A stretch of DNA of 20,013 nt from a virus. Within the stretch, counting starts at the first letter, position 1; every line of letters starts with the position of its first letter. Both the position numbers and the translations under genes were made by a program. The notes beneath the pieces are model-generated. The model had not been told where the DNA came from, did not search any database, and saw nothing but the letters and a program-made list of their open reading frames with translations. Of this stretch, positions 6,678-19,125 are shown piece after piece. The stretch covers positions 1 to 20,013 of the IMG/VR virus record IMGVR_UViG_3300042521_000961. One strand, 5' to 3'.

Positions 6678-7781
6678 ATGGCGATCTTCTCCCTACTTGC
6701 CAAGCTGGGACTCGATGGCACCGCCTTCGAGACCGGCCTCAAGCGGTCGCAATCGTTGGCCAAAGGCATCGGTCGGGAAATCTCCGGAACGCTGGCCAGC
6801 GTGTTCACCGTCAACAAGCTGGCTCAGTTCGGCATGGAGGCGGTCAACACCGCCGGCAAGCTCCAGGATCTTTCCACGCAACTCGGAGTTTCCGCCCAGT
6901 TCCTGCAGGAGATGAAGTTCGCCGCTGATATGGGCGGCTCGAGCTTGGAGGATGTTTCGGGTGCGCTCCAGAAGATCACAATCGCCCGAGGCAAGGCGCT
7001 AGGTGGAGATCAAGGCCTGCTGGATGCCTTCGCCCGATTCGGCATCACCGCCAAAGAGATCAAGTCGGCCAAAATCGAGGACATCTTCCTCAAGATCGGC
7101 AAGGCGTTCGAGGGCGATTCCAACCCGCAGAATCTGCTCCCAGCATTCCGCGAGCTGGCAGGCAAAGGCGCCGGATCCTTGATCCCGGCAATGGCTCAAG
7201 GCCTCGGAGATGCAGCCGACCAGGCACAGCGGCTCGGCATGGTCATGTCGGACGACGTGATCGAATCGCTGGACGAGGCCAACGACCGCATCGAGCTGCT
7301 GGAAAAGACAGCAGTCTCCGGGATGGGCACCTTGATTTCGCAAGGCTTGGTGCCGCTGATGAACCTCTTCGACAAGCTCGGGGCGGCAATTTCGACTTTC
7401 GAGCAGAGATGGATGAACGTCCGGCTCACCTTTTTGACCGGCGGCGTCTCAAAGGGCATGGAAAGCCTGCGCTTCTCCCTGGATCAAGCCCGGCAGGCCT
7501 ACATCAGCGCCGGAGAGGAGCAGGACGCGGAATTGGCCGCCCGAAGGCAAGCTCGGGAAAAGAGGGCGGCAACACGTCGGAAGGTGATGATCGAGCCAGA
7601 GGGGCCGACCAAAACCATCGCCATCTCCGCAGCCACCGGCGACCAGCTTGCCAAAACCGGCGGATTCACAGCCTTCCAGACCAACATGGACCGCTACTTC
7701 GGGGCCGTGAAGACGCAGGCGCAGGACATCCGGGACATCGCCCGCAACACCCAGAGGACGGCCGATGCCGTCGAGGAATAA
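6678..7781 (+). CDS. Tail tape measure protein (short)
   Basis: The 367-residue product has the start MAIFSLLAKLGLDGTAFETGLKRS.., which is the hallmark N-terminus of tape measure proteins (a LDGsxFxxGLxxA pattern), followed by long helical segments with Ala/Gln/Lys (LQDLSTQLGVSAQFLQEMKFAADMGGSS) typical of PhageMin_Tail-type proteins. A hydrophobic stretch lies at about residues 213-242. Tape measure length sets tail length at about 0.15 nm per residue, so this one would predict a tail near 55 nm, which is short for a siphovirus. The C-terminal part is Arg/Lys-rich (AARRQAREKRAATRRK). It ends one base before the next start. Confidence 0.8.
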   Translation: MAIFSLLAKLGLDGTAFETGLKRSQSLAKGIGREISGTLASVFTVNKLAQFGMEAVNTAGKLQDLSTQLGVSAQFLQEMKFAADMGGSSLEDVSGALQKITIARGKALGGDQGLLDAFARFGITAKEIKSAKIEDIFLKIGKAFEGDSNPQNLLPAFRELAGKGAGSLIPAMAQGLGDAADQAQRLGMVMSDDVIESLDEANDRIELLEKTAVSGMGTLISQGLVPLMNLFDKLGAAISTFEQRWMNVRLTFLTGGVSKGMESLRFSLDQARQAYISAGEEQDAELAARRQAREKRAATRRKVMIEPEGPTKTIAISAATGDQLAKTGGFTAFQTNMDRYFGAVKTQAQDIRDIARNTQRTADAVEE

Positions 7782-13639: not shown

Positions 13640-13932
13640 GCGACCGCATCGCAGAACTGGCCGCGCTGATCGCCGGCCGAATTCCTGGGCTCATTGAGGA
13701 GGCCCGGGACCAGATCAACGAGGCAATCAACGCCGCGATGGAGGACGCCCAAGAGAAAGAAAACGGCAAGGCCGTGTTGTCGCTGGCAATCACCGCCAAG
13801 TGGGACCTCGACGGCAACGCGGTCGTCATCTCGATGCCGGTGGCCGTCCGACGGAAGTTTGAGGTGATCGCCGCGTTGGACGATCCGAACCAGCAGAGCC
13901 TGCCCATCGACGAGGAAGGGGGTGCACTGTGA
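13636..13932 (+). CDS. Small conserved-type phage protein in recombination operon
   Basis: The 98-residue product starts with GTG in a GTGA overlap and ends in a GTGA overlap with the nuclease gene. The first half is a helix (RIAELAALIAGRIPGLIEEARDQINEAINAAM), the second a beta unit, KAVLSLAITAKWDLDGNAVVISMPVAVRRKFEVI, followed by LDDPNQQSLPI. I know this second unit as a recurring partner of annealing-protein genes in phages (the LxVKWDLDGxxVxVxMPVxVxxxxExxxxLDDPNQ pattern), with no assigned biochemical role. Coupling to both neighbours suggests a partner of the recombinase or nuclease. Confidence 0.6.
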   Translation: MSDRIAELAALIAGRIPGLIEEARDQINEAINAAMEDAQEKENGKAVLSLAITAKWDLDGNAVVISMPVAVRRKFEVIAALDDPNQQSLPIDEEGGAL

Positions 13933-15044
13933 GCGACGAACGCGCAGCACTACCGAGCGCATCCTCGGCGCACCGATACGCTTCCTGCCCGGGATCTTTC
14001 CTCCTGGAGCAACAGGTCACCGAGCCCGAAACGTCATCGGCCGACGCCACCACGGGAAACCGGATCCACGCTGTTCTGGCCGGAGAGAACGTCCATAAGT
14101 ACCCGGCCGATCAAATCGTCCTGACCTCCGAGGAATCGGAGATCGTGGACCTCTGCACGCAACAAGAGGCGCAGCTTGTCCAGGCCGTGTTCCGCGGATC
14201 CAAGCCTACCAAGACAGTCCGGGAGCGCCGATTCTGGTCTTTTGACCTTGGATGGCGGAATCTCTGGTCAGGCAAGCCTGATGTCGTCCACCTGCTCGGC
14301 GACCGCGTGTTGGTCATCGACTACAAGACCGGCCGCGGCGAGGTCGAACACGCCACCGGCAACCTGCAACTGCGGGCGCTGGCGGTGTTGCTCTCCGAGC
14401 ATTGGGAGGGCACCAACGAAATCACCGTCGCCATCATCCAGCCCCACGCCGGTGAGCCATCGACGTGCACCTACGCAGGGGAGGACATCTACCAGGCCCG
14501 CGTCCAGATCTACGAGCTGATGGACCGCGTGAAGCGCCAAGGGCAACCGAGGGTGCCGTCGACCGAGGCCTGCAAATACTGCAAAGCGAAGCCGATCTGC
14601 CCGGAGGCCCAAGCCGTCGTCGAGACGCTCGCGGCCACCGTGCCGAAAGAGTCCGGCGAGATCGTCATGAGCGCGGAACAGGTCGCCGCGTTCCTGGAGA
14701 AGATCCCGCTGGCCGAGGCTGTGATCGAATCCGTCCGCGGCAAGGCCCGCAGGATCCTCGAGGCCGGGGGCGCCATCCCAGGGTGGAAGCTCAAGCCCGG
14801 GGCCGTCCGCGAGTCCATCACCAAGCCCGAGGTCGTCTTCGGGCGGTTCGTCCAGGCCGGTGGCACGCAAGCCGACTTCGCCAAAATCATCACCGTCACC
14901 AAGACAAAGCTCCGCGACTCGGTAAAGGCCGTGACCGGGACCAAAGGCAAGGAACTGGACGCTCAGGTCGAGGCAATGCTCGACGGATGCACCGAGGCCA
15001 AACAGACCGCGGCCTTGCTGGTCCAAGACAAGGAGGTCGCATGA
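13929..15044 (+). CDS. DUF2800-type PD-(D/E)XK nuclease, Cas4/RecB-like
   Basis: The 371-residue product starts at GTG (GTGA overlap). It has the PD-(D/E)XK nuclease plan with Fe-S ligands: Cys20 in RYASCPGS, His47 in GNRIHAVL, Asp118 in GKPD, Asp131-Tyr-Lys133 in VIDYKTG, Gln147 in NLQLR, and a C-terminal cluster Cys215, Cys218, Cys224 (CKYC...C). These are the RecB-family motifs I, II, III and QxxxY-like region with the four-cysteine cluster known from Cas4/AddB. DUF2800 proteins of phages are the best fit. It likely acts as a 5'-3' exonuclease to generate ssDNA for the annealing protein. A long helical C-terminal part (after 240) is of unknown use. Confidence 0.8.
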   Translation: MSDERAALPSASSAHRYASCPGSFLLEQQVTEPETSSADATTGNRIHAVLAGENVHKYPADQIVLTSEESEIVDLCTQQEAQLVQAVFRGSKPTKTVRERRFWSFDLGWRNLWSGKPDVVHLLGDRVLVIDYKTGRGEVEHATGNLQLRALAVLLSEHWEGTNEITVAIIQPHAGEPSTCTYAGEDIYQARVQIYELMDRVKRQGQPRVPSTEACKYCKAKPICPEAQAVVETLAATVPKESGEIVMSAEQVAAFLEKIPLAEAVIESVRGKARRILEAGGAIPGWKLKPGAVRESITKPEVVFGRFVQAGGTQADFAKIITVTKTKLRDSVKAVTGTKGKELDAQVEAMLDGCTEAKQTAALLVQDKEVA

Positions 15045-15466: not shown

Positions 15467-15795
15467 GGTCGCTTCACGCTCACGGCTTCGGCCGCATTCA
15501 TTCCTCGGCAGAGATCCAGACCAACAACGACGGCAACCAGTTTCTCCTGATGGCCGTCGAGTTTGAGGACCGGATCCTGACCAAGACCTCAAAGCTCTAT
15601 TCCCAACGAGTGACGTTCAGGTCCTTCGACACGCTCGACATGGACCGAGTCGCTGACCTCACGGCCGGCAGATGGGTCGTCATCGACGGCACCTGTGACG
15701 CAGTCGCCGAGAAATCGGAGAACGGCTGGTGGTACGCCAACCCCCGGGTGACTGGCCGCGTCCATCAAATCGTCAACGTCGACCCGCATGTCTGA
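15463..15795 (+). CDS. Candidate OB-fold ssDNA-binding protein
   Basis: Start at ATG 15463 (ATGA). The 110-residue product looks like a compact OB-fold: GFGRIHSSAEIQ, GNQFLLMAVEFED, QRVTFRSFD, LTAGRWVVIDGTCDAVAEKSENGWWYANPRVTGRVHQI. The pattern (start of strand 1 with GRI, aromatic residues on strands 2 and 3, GRWVVIDGTCD, then NPRVTGRV) is the one seen in SSB-like and PriB-like proteins, though it lacks the acidic SSB tail. Its position between a nuclease/annealing operon and RusA supports ssDNA handling. Role is inferred; no exact family identified. Confidence 0.5.
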   Translation: MRSLHAHGFGRIHSSAEIQTNNDGNQFLLMAVEFEDRILTKTSKLYSQRVTFRSFDTLDMDRVADLTAGRWVVIDGTCDAVAEKSENGWWYANPRVTGRVHQIVNVDPHV

Positions 15796-16258
15796 CGTGC
15801 TGCACTTCTGGGTCTCGGGTATCCCGAAGCCACAACCACGGGTCAAGGCGTGCCGCAGGGGCAACCATGCGAGCGTCTACGATCCGGGCACCGCCGACGG
15901 CTGGAAGCTGTTGGTGACCAATGGAGTCAACACGCATTGGAACCGAGTCCAGTTCACCGGCCCATTGCGGCTGGTGCTGGCCTTCGTCATGCCGCGCCCT
16001 CGGGCGCATTACAACCGCCACGGCGACGTCAAGCACAACGCACCGGCATGGTTCGAAAAGAGGCCAGACATCGACAATCTGGCCAAGGCCGTGATGGACG
16101 CCATGACCCAGACGCAAGTCTGGCGCGACGACTCGCAGGTCGTCCAACTGGAGATCGGCAAGGGCTACGGATCGCGCTCGGGATGCTTCGTCGTCTTGGG
16201 CAGTGCGTCGTCGACCGACCCGCTGCTGAAGTTGGATTTCCGGCGGTTTCTGGCCTGA
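15788..16258 (+). CDS. rusA: RusA-family Holliday junction resolvase
   Basis: The 156-residue product starts at ATG 15788, inside the end of the previous gene. It carries the RusA catalytic signature KRPDIDNLAKAVMDAM and VWRDDSQV, with Asp94, Asp96 and Asp115 spaced 2 and 19 residues apart, exactly as Asp70, Asp72 and Asp91 of E. coli RusA. Other family features: GIPKPQPRVK near residues 11-20 and FVMPRPRAH at 67-74. It should cleave Holliday junctions symmetrically in phage DNA during recombination or before packaging. It closes the recombination operon; a 132-base gap follows. Confidence 0.9.
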   Translation: MSDVLHFWVSGIPKPQPRVKACRRGNHASVYDPGTADGWKLLVTNGVNTHWNRVQFTGPLRLVLAFVMPRPRAHYNRHGDVKHNAPAWFEKRPDIDNLAKAVMDAMTQTQVWRDDSQVVQLEIGKGYGSRSGCFVVLGSASSTDPLLKLDFRRFLA

Positions 16259-16312
16259 AAACACGGGGGCCGCGCATCCGAAACACGCGGGACAAAAAAA
16301 TAAAAAAATTGT

Positions 16313-16340
16313 TTGCAAGCCGCTGCGGGCGGTGTAGGTT
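16313..16340 (+). promoter_or_regulatory. Possible sigma70-like promoter
   Basis: After RusA comes an AT-rich tract (ACAAAAAAATAAAAAAATT, 16292-16310) that could act as an UP element or curved DNA, then TTGCAA at 16313-16318, a 16-base spacer and TAGGTT at 16335-16340, with TG directly before it. The match to consensus is partial (TTGACA/TATAAT). It is the only candidate I see in the gap, and the genes downstream are no longer tightly coupled to the operon, so an own promoter is expected here. Confidence 0.4.
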
Positions 16341-16348
16341 GTCCACGT

Positions 16349-16368
16349 CGGAGGCAATCACGCCTCCG
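16349..16368 (+). promoter_or_regulatory. Hairpin in the 5' leader of the 16391 gene
   Basis: CGGAGGC at 16349-16355 pairs perfectly with GCCTCCG at 16362-16368 across a six-base AATCAC loop. It lies just downstream of the possible promoter and 22 bases before the ATG at 16391. The purine-rich arm GGAGG would be a Shine-Dalgarno look-alike but is locked in the stem and too far from the start. No U-run follows, so it is not an intrinsic terminator. It may stabilise or regulate the mRNA. Confidence 0.5.
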
Positions 16369-16390
16369 AGAAACGGAACGAATCAAAAAT

Positions 16391-16615
16391 ATGAAATTCA
16401 CCCTCCGCGACACCTTTAACGGCCGCAACATTTCCAACCATCGCACCCTTAGAGCTGCACTTGAAACCGAGAGCAAGTTTCTGAAATCGGTTCGCAAATC
16501 CAACGGATCCAACTCTTACATCCCAACCGAGATCCTCTGCAATGGAGAGCCGCTGAACGAAGCCATGATGAATGAGGCAATCGAAATCGGGATCCAAATG
16601 ATGACCAGCCGCTGA
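16391..16615 (+). CDS. Small protein of unknown function
   Basis: A 74-residue product from ATG 16391; the frame is open upstream to 16313 but that region holds the promoter and hairpin. Sequence MKFTLRDTFNGRNISNHRTLRAALETESKFLKSVRKSNGSNSY suggests a short beta start followed by a helix; it is basic in the middle and acidic at the C-terminus (EAMMNEAIEIGIQMM). I do not recognise the family. No Shine-Dalgarno sequence is visible upstream (AATCAAAAAT). It stands alone, 48 bases before the next gene, behind its own candidate promoter, so it could be a first gene of an early or regulatory unit. Confidence 0.55.
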   Translation: MKFTLRDTFNGRNISNHRTLRAALETESKFLKSVRKSNGSNSYIPTEILCNGEPLNEAMMNEAIEIGIQMMTSR

Positions 16616-16626
16616 TTTACAAACCT

Positions 16627-16663
16627 GGGGCGCGACCGGCCAACGCGCACAACTTTCCAAGCC
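16627..16663 (+). promoter_or_regulatory. Leader hairpin before the lysozyme-like gene
   Basis: GCGCG at 16630-16634 pairs with CGCGC at 16644-16648 across a nine-base loop (ACCGGCCAA). It is followed by ACAACTTTCCAAGCC and the ATG at 16664. The element ACTTTC lies six bases before the ATG, the same distance as in the leader of the gene at 18047 (ACTTTCACCAAA then ATG), and both follow directly on a GC-rich hairpin. No Shine-Dalgarno sequence is present. It looks like a weaker relative of the gene-proximal hairpins described further right. Confidence 0.4.
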
Positions 16664-16993
16664 ATGACCATTTCAAACCTTATCACCGCCCTCATCATCG
16701 TCGAGTCCTCGGGCAACGATCAGGCCATCGGCGACAACGGACGCGCCCTAGGCCCCCTGCAGATCCACCGCGGGGTGGTTCTGGATGTGAACCGGATCAC
16801 CGGCAGCAACTACCAGTGGCAGCAGATGACCAACAGGGCGCAGGCTAGGGCGGTGTGTGAGGCTTACTTGAAGCACTACGGACGCGGCAAGACTACCGAG
16901 GAGCAGGCCCGCATTTGGAATGGGGGCCCGACCGGAGACCGCAAGGCTTCCACGGTGGCCTACTGGGCCAAGGTGAAGAAGGCGATCAAATGA
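16664..16993 (+). CDS. Lysozyme / lytic transglycosylase-like muramidase
   Basis: The 109-residue product has the lysozyme-fold signature: LIIVESSGNDQAIGDNGRALGPLQIH with candidate catalytic Glu14, the G-PLQI motif at 30-34, and WNGG at 85-88 (the place of the family's AYN/WNGG motif), with a helix between. Length matches minimal SLT-type domains. There is no signal peptide, so export would depend on a holin or it could be a virion enzyme. It should cleave peptidoglycan. It sits far from the lysis-like cluster at 95-762. Alternative: a virion-associated or lysis-timing muramidase. Confidence 0.75.
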   Translation: MTISNLITALIIVESSGNDQAIGDNGRALGPLQIHRGVVLDVNRITGSNYQWQQMTNRAQARAVCEAYLKHYGRGKTTEEQARIWNGGPTGDRKASTVAYWAKVKKAIK

Positions 16994-17000
16994 TTTTCCT

Positions 17001-17060
17001 AGGCGCGGCAGGGCTCGGTTAGGCCTGGCAAGGCACGGCGCGGCTCGGCGCGGCAAGGCA
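17001..17060 (+). repeat. Pentamer run A (NGGCN), 12 units
   Basis: Twelve consecutive pentamers of form NGGCN, 11 of them exact (one is CGGTT). The flanking positions vary freely (A, C, G, T before; A, C, G, T after) while GGC is fixed every five bases. The period is not a multiple of three, so it is not coding. It runs directly into hairpin H1. It begins seven bases after the lysozyme-like gene. Confidence 0.85.
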
Positions 17061-17102
17061 ACACGTTCCCCAGTACGGCAACTGGGACAATTTTTCGGGG
17101 AT
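17061..17102 (+). repeat. Hairpin element H1 (42 bp, type 1)
   Basis: CCCAGT (17069-17074), loop ACGGCA, ACTGGG (17081-17086), followed by ACAATTTTTC and GGGGAT. It has the same length as element H3 (42 bp), with 32 of 42 positions equal, and stem differences largely compensate. A GC-rich stem followed by five Ts resembles an intrinsic terminator or attenuator. The next pentamer run starts right after GGGGAT. Confidence 0.8.
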
Positions 17103-17177
17103 CGGCCTGGCTGGGCAGGGCGAGGCTCGGCACGGCTAGGCACGGCCTGGCGCGGTGTGGCACGGCGCGGCACGGCT
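17103..17177 (+). repeat. Pentamer run B (NGGCN), 15 units
   Basis: Fifteen pentamers, 14 of them exact NGGCN (one CGGTG). Bases 17143-17166 (24 bp) are identical to 17870-17893 in run C. It leads into hairpin H2. Confidence 0.85.
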
Positions 17178-17220
17178 AAACGCCTGCCGGTGGGCGGTAT
17201 CACCGGACATTTTTCGGTCA
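17178..17220 (+). repeat. Hairpin element H2 (type 2, gene-proximal)
   Basis: CCGGTGG (17187-17193) pairs with TCACCGG (17200-17206), with one G-T wobble at the loop end, across loop GCGGTA. Then ACATTTTTCGGTC. The start codon of the next gene (17242) is 35 bases downstream and lacks a clear Shine-Dalgarno sequence (only AAGG). The loop is the same as in H3 and H4. Confidence 0.8.
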
Positions 17221-17241
17221 AACAACTAACCAAGGCAAAAT

Positions 17242-17826
17242 ATGAAGCAGATCAAAGTCAAACTCACCGGGCTCAGGCCCCTCATCATGCACAATGGTCT
17301 GATGGCAGATCCGACCAACCCTTACACGGTGGCGATCAAGAAGATCACCGCCAAGGGCTCCAAGAAGATGACAATACACGACCATCAGGAGCGCGACCGC
17401 CTTGAATGGGAGGCCGGACTTTACTGGTCCGATCTTGAGGGAGGCATGGTCATGCCCTCCGACAATATCGAGCGCTGCATTCAGGAGGGCGCTAAAAAGA
17501 GCCGGCTGGGAAAGGATTTCGCAGCCGCGGTCTTCGTTTCTGAGCCCGAAGTGGTTGTCCACCATCGGAAGATTGGCCAAACCAAGGAGCAAATCTACGC
17601 GGACCCGGCCTACACTATCCGCAAAGGCGTCAAAGTGCAGCTTGCCCGGATCATTCGGATCCGCCCCTTGGTGCCAACCGGCTGGTGGCTGGCTTGCACC
17701 ATTGAGTTCGACGAATCCATCGTCAACCAAGCTCAGGTCATCGACTCCACACGGGAGGCCGGCGCCATCATCGGCCTGGGCGACTGGCGACCGAAGTTCG
17801 GCCGGTTCACCGTCGAGGTGGTTTGA
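17242..17826 (+). CDS. Phage protein of unknown function behind composite leader
   Basis: A 194-residue product. The N-terminus KVKLTGLRPLIMHNGLMADPTNPYT is one I know from uncharacterised phage proteins (pattern V.L.G..PLLMH.....DP.NP.T), followed by a basic helix KKITAKGSKKM.., WEAGLYWSD, and DNIERCIQEGAKKSRLGKDFAAAVFV. The C-terminal part (LARIIRIRPLVPTGWWLACTIEFDESIVNQAQV, then GLGDWRPKFGRFTVEV) has alternating beta and a G.GDWRP..GRF motif. The start strand and Gly-rich end are loosely reminiscent of RAMP/Cas7-like folds, but I do not claim that; a structure prediction would decide. It precedes another module with the same leader design. Confidence 0.6.
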   Translation: MKQIKVKLTGLRPLIMHNGLMADPTNPYTVAIKKITAKGSKKMTIHDHQERDRLEWEAGLYWSDLEGGMVMPSDNIERCIQEGAKKSRLGKDFAAAVFVSEPEVVVHHRKIGQTKEQIYADPAYTIRKGVKVQLARIIRIRPLVPTGWWLACTIEFDESIVNQAQVIDSTREAGAIIGLGDWRPKFGRFTVEVV

Positions 17827-17834
17827 TTTTCTCA

Positions 17835-17894
17835 CGGCGCGGCGCGGCTCGGCGCGGTAAGGCATGGCGCGGCCTGGCGCGGTGTGGCACGGCA
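17835..17894 (+). repeat. Pentamer run C, 12 units, mosaic of runs A and B
   Basis: Twelve pentamers, ten exact NGGCN and two CGGTN, starting eight bases after the gene stop. Bases 17840-17864 match 17036-17060 of run A at 24 of 25 positions, and 17870-17893 equal 17143-17166 of run B exactly, so this run combines parts of both. Confidence 0.85.
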
Positions 17895-17936
17895 ACACGC
17901 GACCCGGCGCGGTATCCGGGACAATTTTTCAGGGAT
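17895..17936 (+). repeat. Hairpin element H3 (42 bp, type 1)
   Basis: CCCGG (17903-17907) pairs with CCGGG (17916-17920) around an eight-base loop holding GCGGTA, followed by ACAATTTTTC and AGGGAT. Length equals H1. One stem pair is A-T in H1 and G-C here (position 12 with 23), a compensatory change; the pair next to the loop is lost here (C opposite T). Confidence 0.8.
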
Positions 17937-18001
17937 TGGTAAGGATTGGCATGTTTGGGACCGGCGCGATAGGGCGCGGCTGGGCAAGGCGGTGCGTGGC
18001 A
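17937..18001 (+). repeat. Pentamer run D, 13 degenerate units
   Basis: Thirteen pentamers kept in phase, of which about seven are exact NGGCN; others are TGGTA, AGGAT, TGTTT, GGGAC, CGATA, GTGCG. This is the most decayed of the four runs. It ends at hairpin H4. Confidence 0.7.
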
Positions 18002-18046
18002 ACAACGCTTTCCGGTGTGCGGTAACACCGGGCAACTTTCACCAAA
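18002..18046 (+). repeat. Hairpin element H4 (type 2, gene-proximal)
   Basis: CCGGTGT (18012-18018) pairs perfectly with ACACCGG (18025-18031) around loop GCGGTA; a T-G pair can extend it. Then GCAACTTTCACCAAA and the ATG at 18047, only 15 bases from the stem. Compared with H2 the loop-closing pair changes from G-T to T-A on both sides. There is no Shine-Dalgarno sequence between the stem and the start. Confidence 0.8.
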
Positions 18047-18526
18047 ATGAACACAGAACAAATCGAATCACAACCAGACATCCGGACCCTTCCTCTGTGG
18101 AAGGACTGGATCGACCGCAACGAACACCGCATCGCCTACGGGTTCACCGTGACGATGAAGGAAATGGAAGATGCGCTCGGGCGCAAAAATGGCACCGTCG
18201 CCTTCAACATCGACGTTTTCAAGATCCGCGAGGCCCTGCGTCACCGAGGAATGAACTTCTCGGAGCGCGGACTCCGAGGATCCGGGTTCCACGTCATGCC
18301 GGCCAACTCCAACGCCGACACCATGGAAGGCATGGCACGGGCCGCAGTCAACGCGCTTACCGCGGCCGTCGTGCTCGGATCCACGACCGACCAGAGCCAA
18401 CTCACCGACCAAGAGCGCCAGCGGCACGAAGCAGCCACACAGAAGGCCGCGGCTAGGCTGGCCCTGCTGTCGCGCAAGGCGCCCAACGCAGTCAGCGCCG
18501 CAGCCAAACAACTGCAGGCCGCTTGA
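18047..18526 (+). CDS. Phage protein of unknown function, DNA-binding-like pattern
   Basis: A 159-residue product. It begins with an acidic, polar segment (TEQIESQPDIRTLPLWKDWIDRNEHRIAYGFTVTMKEMEDALG), which may be a helix-turn-helix-like region (TMKEMEDALGRKNGTVAFNIDVFKIREALRHRGMNF), then SERGLRGSGFHVMP and a long Ala/Gln/Arg-rich helical tail (DQERQRHEAATQKAAARLALLSRKAPNAVSAA). The middle motif (IREALRHRGMNFSERGLRGSGFHV) resembles a recurrent unnamed phage protein. A regulatory or replication role is possible. It is the second gene carrying the composite leader. Family function unknown to me. Confidence 0.55.
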   Translation: MNTEQIESQPDIRTLPLWKDWIDRNEHRIAYGFTVTMKEMEDALGRKNGTVAFNIDVFKIREALRHRGMNFSERGLRGSGFHVMPANSNADTMEGMARAAVNALTAAVVLGSTTDQSQLTDQERQRHEAATQKAAARLALLSRKAPNAVSAAAKQLQAA

Positions 18527-18542
18527 AAACATTCGTGATTTT

Positions 18543-18554
18543 CATGCCGGCATG
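18543..18554. promoter_or_regulatory. Perfect 12-bp palindrome, possible operator
   Basis: CATGCCGGCATG is fully self-complementary and lies 17 bases after the stop of the 18047 gene, ending just at the start of the GGAGGAG Shine-Dalgarno sequence of the next gene. As a dyad it could bind a dimeric repressor or form a small hairpin masking the ribosome site. A 12-bp palindrome is not rare enough to be decisive. Confidence 0.35.
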
Positions 18555-18566
18555 GAGGAGAAGAAA

Positions 18567-18773
18567 ATGAACCGTTTCATCGCCGGCTTCGCCTGCGGCT
18601 GCCTCGTCGGATCGCTTGTCTCGACCGCGATCGAGATGGCCGAATACCGCGCCCGGGTCCGGCAGCTCGTCCAGGAGCGGATGGAAGTCGAGGCGGTCAT
18701 GACCGGCCACGCTGAATGGCTCGAAGGCAAGGACGGCAAGCCGATGTTCTCATGGAGGGAGAAATGCAGATGA
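18567..18773 (+). CDS. Small membrane protein
   Basis: I prefer the ATG at 18567, with GGAGGAG at 18554-18560 as the ribosome site; an in-frame ATG at 18552 would lie within that site. The 68-residue product has an N-terminal TM segment (FIAGFACGCLVGSLVSTAIEM) and a charged helical C-terminal domain (EYRARVRQLVQERMEVEAV..). Layout is that of a small inner-membrane phage protein with a cytoplasmic coil. Function unknown. Its end overlaps the next gene. Confidence 0.6.
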   Translation: MNRFIAGFACGCLVGSLVSTAIEMAEYRARVRQLVQERMEVEAVMTGHAEWLEGKDGKPMFSWREKCR

Positions 18774-18907
18774 AAACGACCCTAGCGTTTCTGGTCGGAG
18801 TTCTGGTCGGTGCCTATGCAGCCGGCCAAGTATGGCAGGAGGAAGCAATCAAACGTGGTTTTGCAGTAGTAGACAACAATCAATTCAAATGGAAAAAGTG
18901 CAAATGA
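18764..18907 (+). CDS. Small protein with N-terminal hydrophobic segment
   Basis: A 47-residue product from ATG 18764, with GGAGGG at 18754-18759 five bases upstream; ATG 18770, which overlaps the previous stop as ATGA, is an alternative. A hydrophobic segment TLAFLVGVLVGAYAAGQV gives a TM or signal helix, followed by a short polar tail KWKKCK. It resembles the preceding small membrane protein in layout. Function unknown. Confidence 0.5.
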   Translation: MQMKTTLAFLVGVLVGAYAAGQVWQEEAIKRGFAVVDNNQFKWKKCK

Positions 18908-19125
18908 GCATCAAGATCTCAGAATTCATTAACGACCCGTGGCAAGCCATTGCGATTGATGCGATGCGCCGTGGTTTGGAAATCACCGCCAAGACCGGGA
19001 AGAGACTAGATAGCAATGGGACAATGATTATCGGGCTTTGCGACGTGATCCTAGAGATGCAACAACGCATTGAGAAGATGGAGGGAAACAGGCTCCCGTG
19101 TGGGGTCGTGGAGGAGGCGAAATGA
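18904..19125 (+). CDS. Small early-region protein
   Basis: A 73-residue product starting at ATGA overlap (18904); the frame is open further upstream but that overlaps the small membrane gene. Sequence MSIKISEFINDPWQAIAIDAMRRGLEITAKTGKRLDSNGTM then IIGLCDVILEMQQRIEKME, predicted to be largely helical, with a C-terminal GGAGG-rich coding end (VVEEAK) that also serves as the next gene's ribosome site. Family not recognised. Confidence 0.55.
   Translation: MSIKISEFINDPWQAIAIDAMRRGLEITAKTGKRLDSNGTMIIGLCDVILEMQQRIEKMEGNRLPCGVVEEAK
19113..19125 (+). promoter_or_regulatory. Start box 1: ribosome site in the previous gene's end
   Basis: GGAGGCGAAATGA. The Shine-Dalgarno GGAGG, the overlapping stop TGA and the ATG at 19122 form one unit. 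The same 13 bases recur at 19274-19286 and 20000-20012. Confidence 0.7.

What the first reader, a model, noticed from the sequence alone, without database searches (positions are those of the whole stretch)
17001..18046. Duplicated composite leader: pentamer run, hairpin, pentamer run, hairpin, then start codon
Two successive genes (17242 and 18047) are each preceded by the same architecture: NGGCN run, type 1 hairpin with ACAATTTTTC, second run, and type 2 hairpin with loop GCGGTA close to the ATG. Total lengths differ by under 30 bases. Repetition of the whole four-part order, not just of one part, argues that the layout is functional or mobile as a unit. Possible roles: a riboregulator with terminator-like and start-proximal hairpins; a recombination boundary allowing genes to be exchanged as cassettes; a multi-site protein-binding array. 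The nearest described analogue I recall is the start-associated and extended start-associated sequences of cluster K mycobacteriophages, which lack the pentamer runs.
Basis: partly seen in the sequence, partly recalled or inferred. Interest (0 to 1): 0.88.

Follow-up and report, generated by a model that had tools for sequence, protein, structure and literature searches.

The report
Phage VIPR locus with four guides
The repeated "leaders" are four guide-RNA genes of a VIPR system, a recently described CRISPR-like weapon that phages use against rival phages, so the find is a new member of a published family rather than a new kind of leader.

Summary
Each "pentamer run + hairpin" is one module, present four times (17002-17096, 17099-17215, 17836-17930, 17933-18040). 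The gene at 17242 encodes a RAMP/Cas7-fold protein (model pLDDT 96.7; best structural matches Csm3, Z 11) homologous to the solved SUSP1 Vipr protein (E 7e-27). The gene at 18047 belongs weakly to the family of the gene next to SUSP1 vipr (vap1). This matches VIPR systems (bioRxiv 2026, PMC13142463): vrRNAs of GGY/NN repeats plus a constant structured tail, which guide Vipr to DNA. I reached the association independently: degenerate GGYNN arrays are common in viral contigs, and 76 of 99 such loci hold a Vipr gene (median 18 bp away, 75 of 76 on the same strand; controls 0 of 46 and 0 of 114). Between phages whose vipr is 84-91% identical, the window's NN letters match at chance level while GGY and tails stay fixed; tail stems covary. 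No target of the window's own guides was found. A sibling guide matches, over 8 consecutive units read with one skipped base, the clade's 14-nt genome-end (cos-like) site: a lead only. Verdict: type II-like VIPR locus, new member of a known kind.

The parts
17002..17061 (+). vrRNA1 guide: 12 GGYNN units (NN = GC AG TC TA CT AA AC GC TC GC AA AA)
17057..17096 (+). vrRNA1 tail (type 1): AACACG + 6-bp hairpin 17069-17086 + ACAATTTTTC; overlaps the last guide unit
   Evidence: covariance model 65.3 bits, E 1.3e-12 (this sequence was in the model); stem covaries in relatives
17099..17178 (+). vrRNA2 guide: GGA-TC followed by 15 GGYNN units (17104-17178)
   Evidence: the 17099 unit by reading
17174..17215 (+). 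vrRNA2 tail (type 2): 7-bp hairpin 17187-17206 (loop GCGGTA) + ACATTTTTC
17242..17826 (+). vipr: RAMP-fold RNA-binding protein, 194 aa, phrog_4652
   Evidence: PDB 36pp_D SUSP1 Vipr E 6.8e-27, profile E 3.9e-38; AlphaFold pLDDT 96.7; Csm3/Cas7 fold
17836..17895 (+). vrRNA3 guide: 12 GGYNN units (GC GC TC GC AA AT GC CT GC GT AC AA)
17891..17930 (+). vrRNA3 tail (type 1), hairpin 17903-17920
   Evidence: 61.1 bits, E 1.3e-11 (this sequence was in the model)
17933..18002 (+). vrRNA4 guide: 14 units in one phase, 6 of them without GGY (GGA x3, GTT, GAT, TGC); best-kept stretch 17973-18000
   Evidence: full phase by reading
17998..18040 (+). vrRNA4 tail (type 2), 7-bp hairpin 18012-18031, loop GCGGTA
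18047..18526 (+). vap (accessory gene, vap1-like): 159 aa, predicted winged-helix-like N-terminal part, phrog_5926
   Evidence: phrog_5926 E 2.6e-4, the family of SUSP1 ALH47068 (E 1e-75); model pLDDT 79.6; weak winged-helix matches

Best explanation
This is a type II-like VIPR (Viral Interference Programmable Repeat) locus: vrRNA1-vrRNA2-vipr-vrRNA3-vrRNA4-vap. Each run of GGYNN pentamers is the variable part of a guide RNA and each hairpin is its constant 3' tail. The Vipr protein, a small Cas7-like RAMP, is expected to polymerise along the RNA holding the GGY of each repeat (inferred from homology), leaving each NN to pair with target DNA while one target base is skipped between NN pairs (shown for SUSP1 in the paper, not here). 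The bound complex would silence or block DNA of competing phages or satellites; the vap protein, probably DNA-binding, would help. The NN letters turn over quickly because guides follow rivals; tails and GGY are fixed because Vipr holds them.
For: Homology of gene 17242 to the solved SUSP1 Vipr, and the same sequence recovered from SUSP1 next to its GGTNN arrays. Confident RAMP fold. GGY/NN composition: triplet G 97%, G 98%, Y 98%, against NN entropy 3.91 of 4 bits over 71 distinct guides of the clade. NN identity of the window's guides to same-tail guides of phages with 84-91% identical vipr is at chance (mostly 0.1-0.5; one irregular 0.7). Constant tail with covarying stem: 97.9% paired, 9 double-change cells, 0 of 500 shuffles as high. 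Vipr gene in 76 of 99 independent degenerate-array loci, median 18 bp away, 75 of 76 co-directional, 0 of 46 and 0 of 114 controls. Guide plus tail is about 95-120 nt, regular guides have 12-15 units, as in the paper (about 100 nt, 9-16 units). Neighbour gene in the vap1 family. Guides of different phages tile one shared NN word in staggered registers, as expected if NN encodes a target.
Against: No RNA data exist for this phage. No target was found for the window's guides. vap homology is weak (E 2.6e-4; hhalign with SUSP1 vap1 covers 67 columns, E 0.005, probability 7%). vrRNA4 is partly decayed. 23 of 99 array loci showed no Vipr nearby; about 10 are cut near the array, others are not.
Confidence: 0.96

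Rival explanations
1. TRAP-like attenuation: a ring protein binds about 11 GGCNN repeats in the mRNA leader and the following hairpin acts as terminator or start-site blocker, regulating the downstream gene in cis.
For: Regular triplet-NN repeats, about 11 per run, followed by terminator-like hairpins (three of the four scored terminator-like); almost always sense to the genes.
Against: The triplet is GGY, not GAG/UAG; the partner protein is a RAMP, not TRAP. Arrays of up to 9 modules and arrays downstream of vipr (47 of 76 loci downstream only) do not suit a leader. Hypervariable NN and guides shared in staggered registers are not expected of a leader.
Confidence: 0.02
2. Recombination boundaries or mobile cassettes: hairpins are exchange points and pentamer runs are hypervariable DNA without an RNA function.
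For: Single runs are shared between contigs with different neighbouring runs, e.g. the same guide in L089, L090 and L093.
Against: Does not explain GGY conservation, strand bias, covarying stems or the constant company of vipr. Exchange of guides is expected in a VIPR array anyway.
Confidence: 0.01
3. Start-associated or riboregulatory elements comparable to SAS/ESAS of cluster K mycobacteriophages.
For: The type 2 hairpin lies about 15 and 35 nt before the two ATGs.
Against: Modules also occur in tandem, away from start codons, and only around vipr and vap; none elsewhere in the genomes searched with the model.
Confidence: 0.01

Closest known systems
VIPR of Escherichia phage SUSP1 (type II; KT454805: vipr ALH47069, vap1 ALH47068; PMC13142463; PDB 36pp)
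   Same: RAMP-fold Vipr (E 7e-27), GGY/NN guides followed by a structured constant tail, a small neighbouring gene of the same PHROG, phage-borne, guides on the coding strand.
   Different: Order: two vrRNAs before vipr and two between vipr and vap here; SUSP1 has one before vipr and three after vap. Triplet mostly GGC here, GGT in SUSP1. Tail sequence unrelated (a model of the clade's tail finds nothing in SUSP1); a pseudoknot was not examined here.
Class 1 CRISPR Cas7/Csm3 (RAMP backbone)
   Same: Fold of the backbone protein (Z about 11); variable RNA segment capped by a constant structured segment.
   Different: No spacers of free sequence: 3 of every 5 bases are fixed. No cas genes among the window ORFs searched.
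TRAP and its GAG/UAG-NN RNA sites
   Same: A regular triplet-NN repeat read by an oligomeric RNA-binding protein.
   Different: Other protein fold, other triplet, trans-acting guide instead of cis leader.

Membership tests
VIPR system | Vipr protein: RAMP homolog with RRM core, about 20 kDa | tested here: met
   phmmer to PDB 36pp_D SUSP1 Vipr E 6.8e-27; fold matches to Csm3/Cas7; 194 aa
VIPR system | vrRNA with 9-16 tandem YNNGG repeats, GGY conserved, NN hypervariable | tested here: met
   12, 15 and 12 units, the fourth 14 units but with 6 triplets off consensus; clade statistics; DNA level only
VIPR system | Invariable structured 3' tail after the repeats | tested here: met
   Tails near invariant in 27 loci; covariation; model matches only in arrays
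VIPR system | vipr flanked by intergenic vrRNAs and a vap gene | tested here: met
   Layout read directly; vap family phrog_5926 at weak E 2.6e-4
VIPR system | vrRNAs are expressed and co-purify with Vipr | not testable with these tools
   Needs RNA sequencing and pull-down
VIPR system | Targets read by the 1-nt skip rule, in competing mobile elements | tested here: inconclusive
   Window guides: no target. Clade guides versus clade genomes: 25 exact matches of 7 or more units with skip 1; 0, 0 and 4 with skips 0, 2, 3 (the 4 look like the arrays themselves); shuffled guides 0-6; a mismatch-tolerant version gives only a modest excess over shuffles
VIPR type II | Vipr phylogeny, vrRNA architecture and vap1 as in SUSP1 and P. 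fulva | tested here: inconclusive
   vap family and tailed vrRNAs agree; no type phylogeny was built and the paper's type data are not held
CRISPR-Cas class 1 | cas genes and an array of identical repeats with free spacers | tested here: not met
   No such genes among the window ORFs searched; intervening sequence is GGYNN, not free
TRAP-regulated leader | GAG/UAG triplets and a TRAP-fold protein | tested here: not met
   Triplet GGY; the neighbouring protein has the RAMP fold
Cluster K SAS/ESAS | Conserved SAS/ESAS sequence directly at start codons | not tested
   Recalled only; no cluster K sequence was compared

The most novel reading that the evidence does not exclude
In sibling phages of this clade a vrRNA (vap-proximal guide in L109, L087, L093, L096, L023, L086) is aimed at the cohesive-end (packaging) site of related phages or of cos-sharing satellites: 8 consecutive NN units (AT AC GG GA CG GA AC CC), read with one skipped base, cover the invariant 14-nt GGTGAACGCGAGAC at which a dozen or more contigs of the clade end. 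VIPR would then interfere with packaging of rivals' DNA as well as with transcription.
Probability: 0.15. Interest if true: 0.75.

Novelty: new member of a known kind. Interest (0 to 1): 0.5.

Why it matters
VIPR was reported only in April 2026, as a possible ancestor of CRISPR. This locus and its relatives give an uncultured phage clade with many closely related copies (92 vrRNAs, 71 distinct guides in 27 loci), which lets guide turnover, exchange between phages, tail evolution and natural targets be followed. The independent survey (76 of 99 degenerate arrays beside a Vipr gene) supports the published association from a different starting point, the repeats rather than the protein.

Tried and rejected
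Rfam: no family above chance in 16000-19000. DNA similarity to known phages: none. Pfam: no family for Vipr. Literature search for "GGCNN" and for pentanucleotide repeats before the Vipr hit: nothing relevant. Targets of window guides: 9-unit seed of vrRNA1, 0 hits in IMG/VR; 8-unit seeds of vrRNA2 and vrRNA3, 7 and 15 hits, none extending, so chance. Composite target shared by guides of L062, L064, L068, L080 and L096: 0 hits in IMG/VR; one 3-mismatch hit in 384 bacterial genomes, no extension, so chance. 465 guides against 3.1 Mb of held DNA: no excess at skip 1 over skip 0. vrRNA3 of the window matches 7 consecutive units in L023 at 6247, within what shuffles give. Host: one class, that of a Chthoniobacterales MAG, was searched for vipr, 1 weak relative in 384 genomes; host unknown. 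Bacterial-genome hits of the GGC pattern are nearly all simple tandem repeats.

Full report
What is there. The window is a whole 20,013-base IMG/VR virus record. Period-5 GGC runs occur only in the region named, on the + strand, and not in shuffled sequence. Each run is followed by a hairpin of one family: stem, loop [A/G]CGG[T/C]A, then ACAA and a T-rich stretch. The unit is run + hairpin, four times: two before the gene at 17242 and two before the gene at 18047.

Relatives. Patterns and the protein of 17242 brought in some 25 close contigs and about ten more distant ones with the same architecture around the same two genes. Distant ones carry 3 to 9 modules in tandem with different hairpins of the same placement. 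In closely related contigs the tails are nearly identical while the two bases between GGC triplets differ: window guides compared with phages whose vipr gene is 84-91% identical match mostly at 0.1-0.5, i.e. chance. Over 71 distinct guides the triplet is G 97%, G 98%, C or T 98%, and the NN dinucleotide has 3.91 of 4 bits. The tail stem covaries (97.9% paired; three pairs with changes on both sides; covariation score 0.565 against 0.229 in shuffles, 0 of 500 as high; eight rows, so modest in number). A covariance model of the tail finds 23 matches in 746 kb, in this clade's contigs only, at array positions (the sequences used to build it match by construction).

Unbiased survey. Viral hits mostly have degenerate NN (entropy 2.5-3.8 bits); bacterial hits are nearly all simple tandem repeats. 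In 99 viral loci with degenerate arrays, 76 hold a homolog of the 17242 protein, at a median distance of 18 bp, 75 of 76 on the same strand as the array; 0 of 46 array-less pattern hits and 0 of 114 low-entropy genome hits hold one. The homologs go down to about 15-20% identity to the window's. Some contigs in the set are near duplicates, and the survey was not corrected for this.

Identity. The 17242 protein matches PDB 36pp_D, "SUSP1 Vipr protein" (E 6.8e-27; profile E 3.9e-38). Its model (pLDDT 96.7) matches Csm3/Cas7 RAMP proteins (Foldseek E about 1e-5; Z about 11, 135-157 residues, rmsd about 3.5-4). The paper behind the name (PMC13142463) describes VIPR: Vipr plus vrRNAs of 9-16 YNNGG repeats and a constant structured tail, NN pairing with DNA with one skipped base, aimed at competing phages and satellites, with an accessory vap gene. 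SUSP1 itself, fetched here, has GGTNN arrays beside vipr, and its next gene belongs to phrog_5926, as does the window's 18047 gene, weakly (profile comparison weak). The 18047 model is of medium confidence with weak winged-helix matches, in line with the paper's "predicted DNA-binding" vap of type II.

Mechanism. Shown here: the repeat logic, tail structure by covariation, association with Vipr, fold. Taken from the paper for SUSP1 and inferred for this phage: expression of vrRNAs, binding by Vipr, noncontiguous pairing with dsDNA, repression. Additional support for NN as target code: guides in different phages, on different tail types and at different places of the locus, share one word of NN units in staggered registers (GG CC TG TT TA GC AC RT AR CC CC TG AA GT GG GA).

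Targets. None was found for the window's guides. Within the clade, exact matches of 7 or more units occur 25 times at skip 1, and 0, 0 and 4 times at skips 0, 2 and 3 (the 4 appear to be unmasked arrays); shuffled guides give 0-6. The 25 are few independent events, and a mismatch-tolerant scan gives 7 guides at or above score 14 against 3.0 for shuffles, so this is suggestive only. The strongest match lies on GGTGAACGCGAGAC, an invariant 14-mer at which more than a dozen clade contigs begin or end, most simply the cohesive ends of linear 28-30 kb genomes (inferred). The guide's other half does not match these phages. I rate this as a lead.

Verdict. A VIPR locus, type II-like, in an uncultured phage; new member of a known kind.

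Noticed in passing
L362:712-804 region; ends of L023, L038, L082, L372, L368, L360, L370, L373, L071, L079, L361, L369, L374, L371: Contigs of this clade end or begin exactly at an invariant 14-nt GGTGAACGCGAGAC, most likely the cohesive ends; some are apparently complete linear genomes of 28-30 kb. The 39.9-kb relative G001 lacks it.
   Followed up: partly
L105:4590-6400; L108:4586-5870: More distant phages carry two tandem vrRNA arrays, one before the vap-like gene and one (9 and 5 modules) after it; in L105 the gene after the second array looks nuclease-like (VRR-NUC by eye).
   Followed up: no
L112, L171, L186, L228: Degenerate GGYNN arrays with more than 1 kb of flank and no recognisable Vipr gene: a diverged Vipr, an orphan array or a chance run.
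   Followed up: partly
L121, L146, L135, L190, L218, L222: Arrays without hairpin tails, blocks of GGYNN units separated by short phase breaks (such as TCAG, CGCA), resembling the 'staggered arrays' of the VIPR paper; 42 of 83 loci were classed as short-gap.
   Followed up: partly
window 13929-15044, 15788-16258, 16664-16993, 6678-7781: Ordinary phage genes: DUF2800 exonuclease, RusA resolvase, SLT-type lysozyme (below cutoff), tape measure protein.
   Followed up: yes
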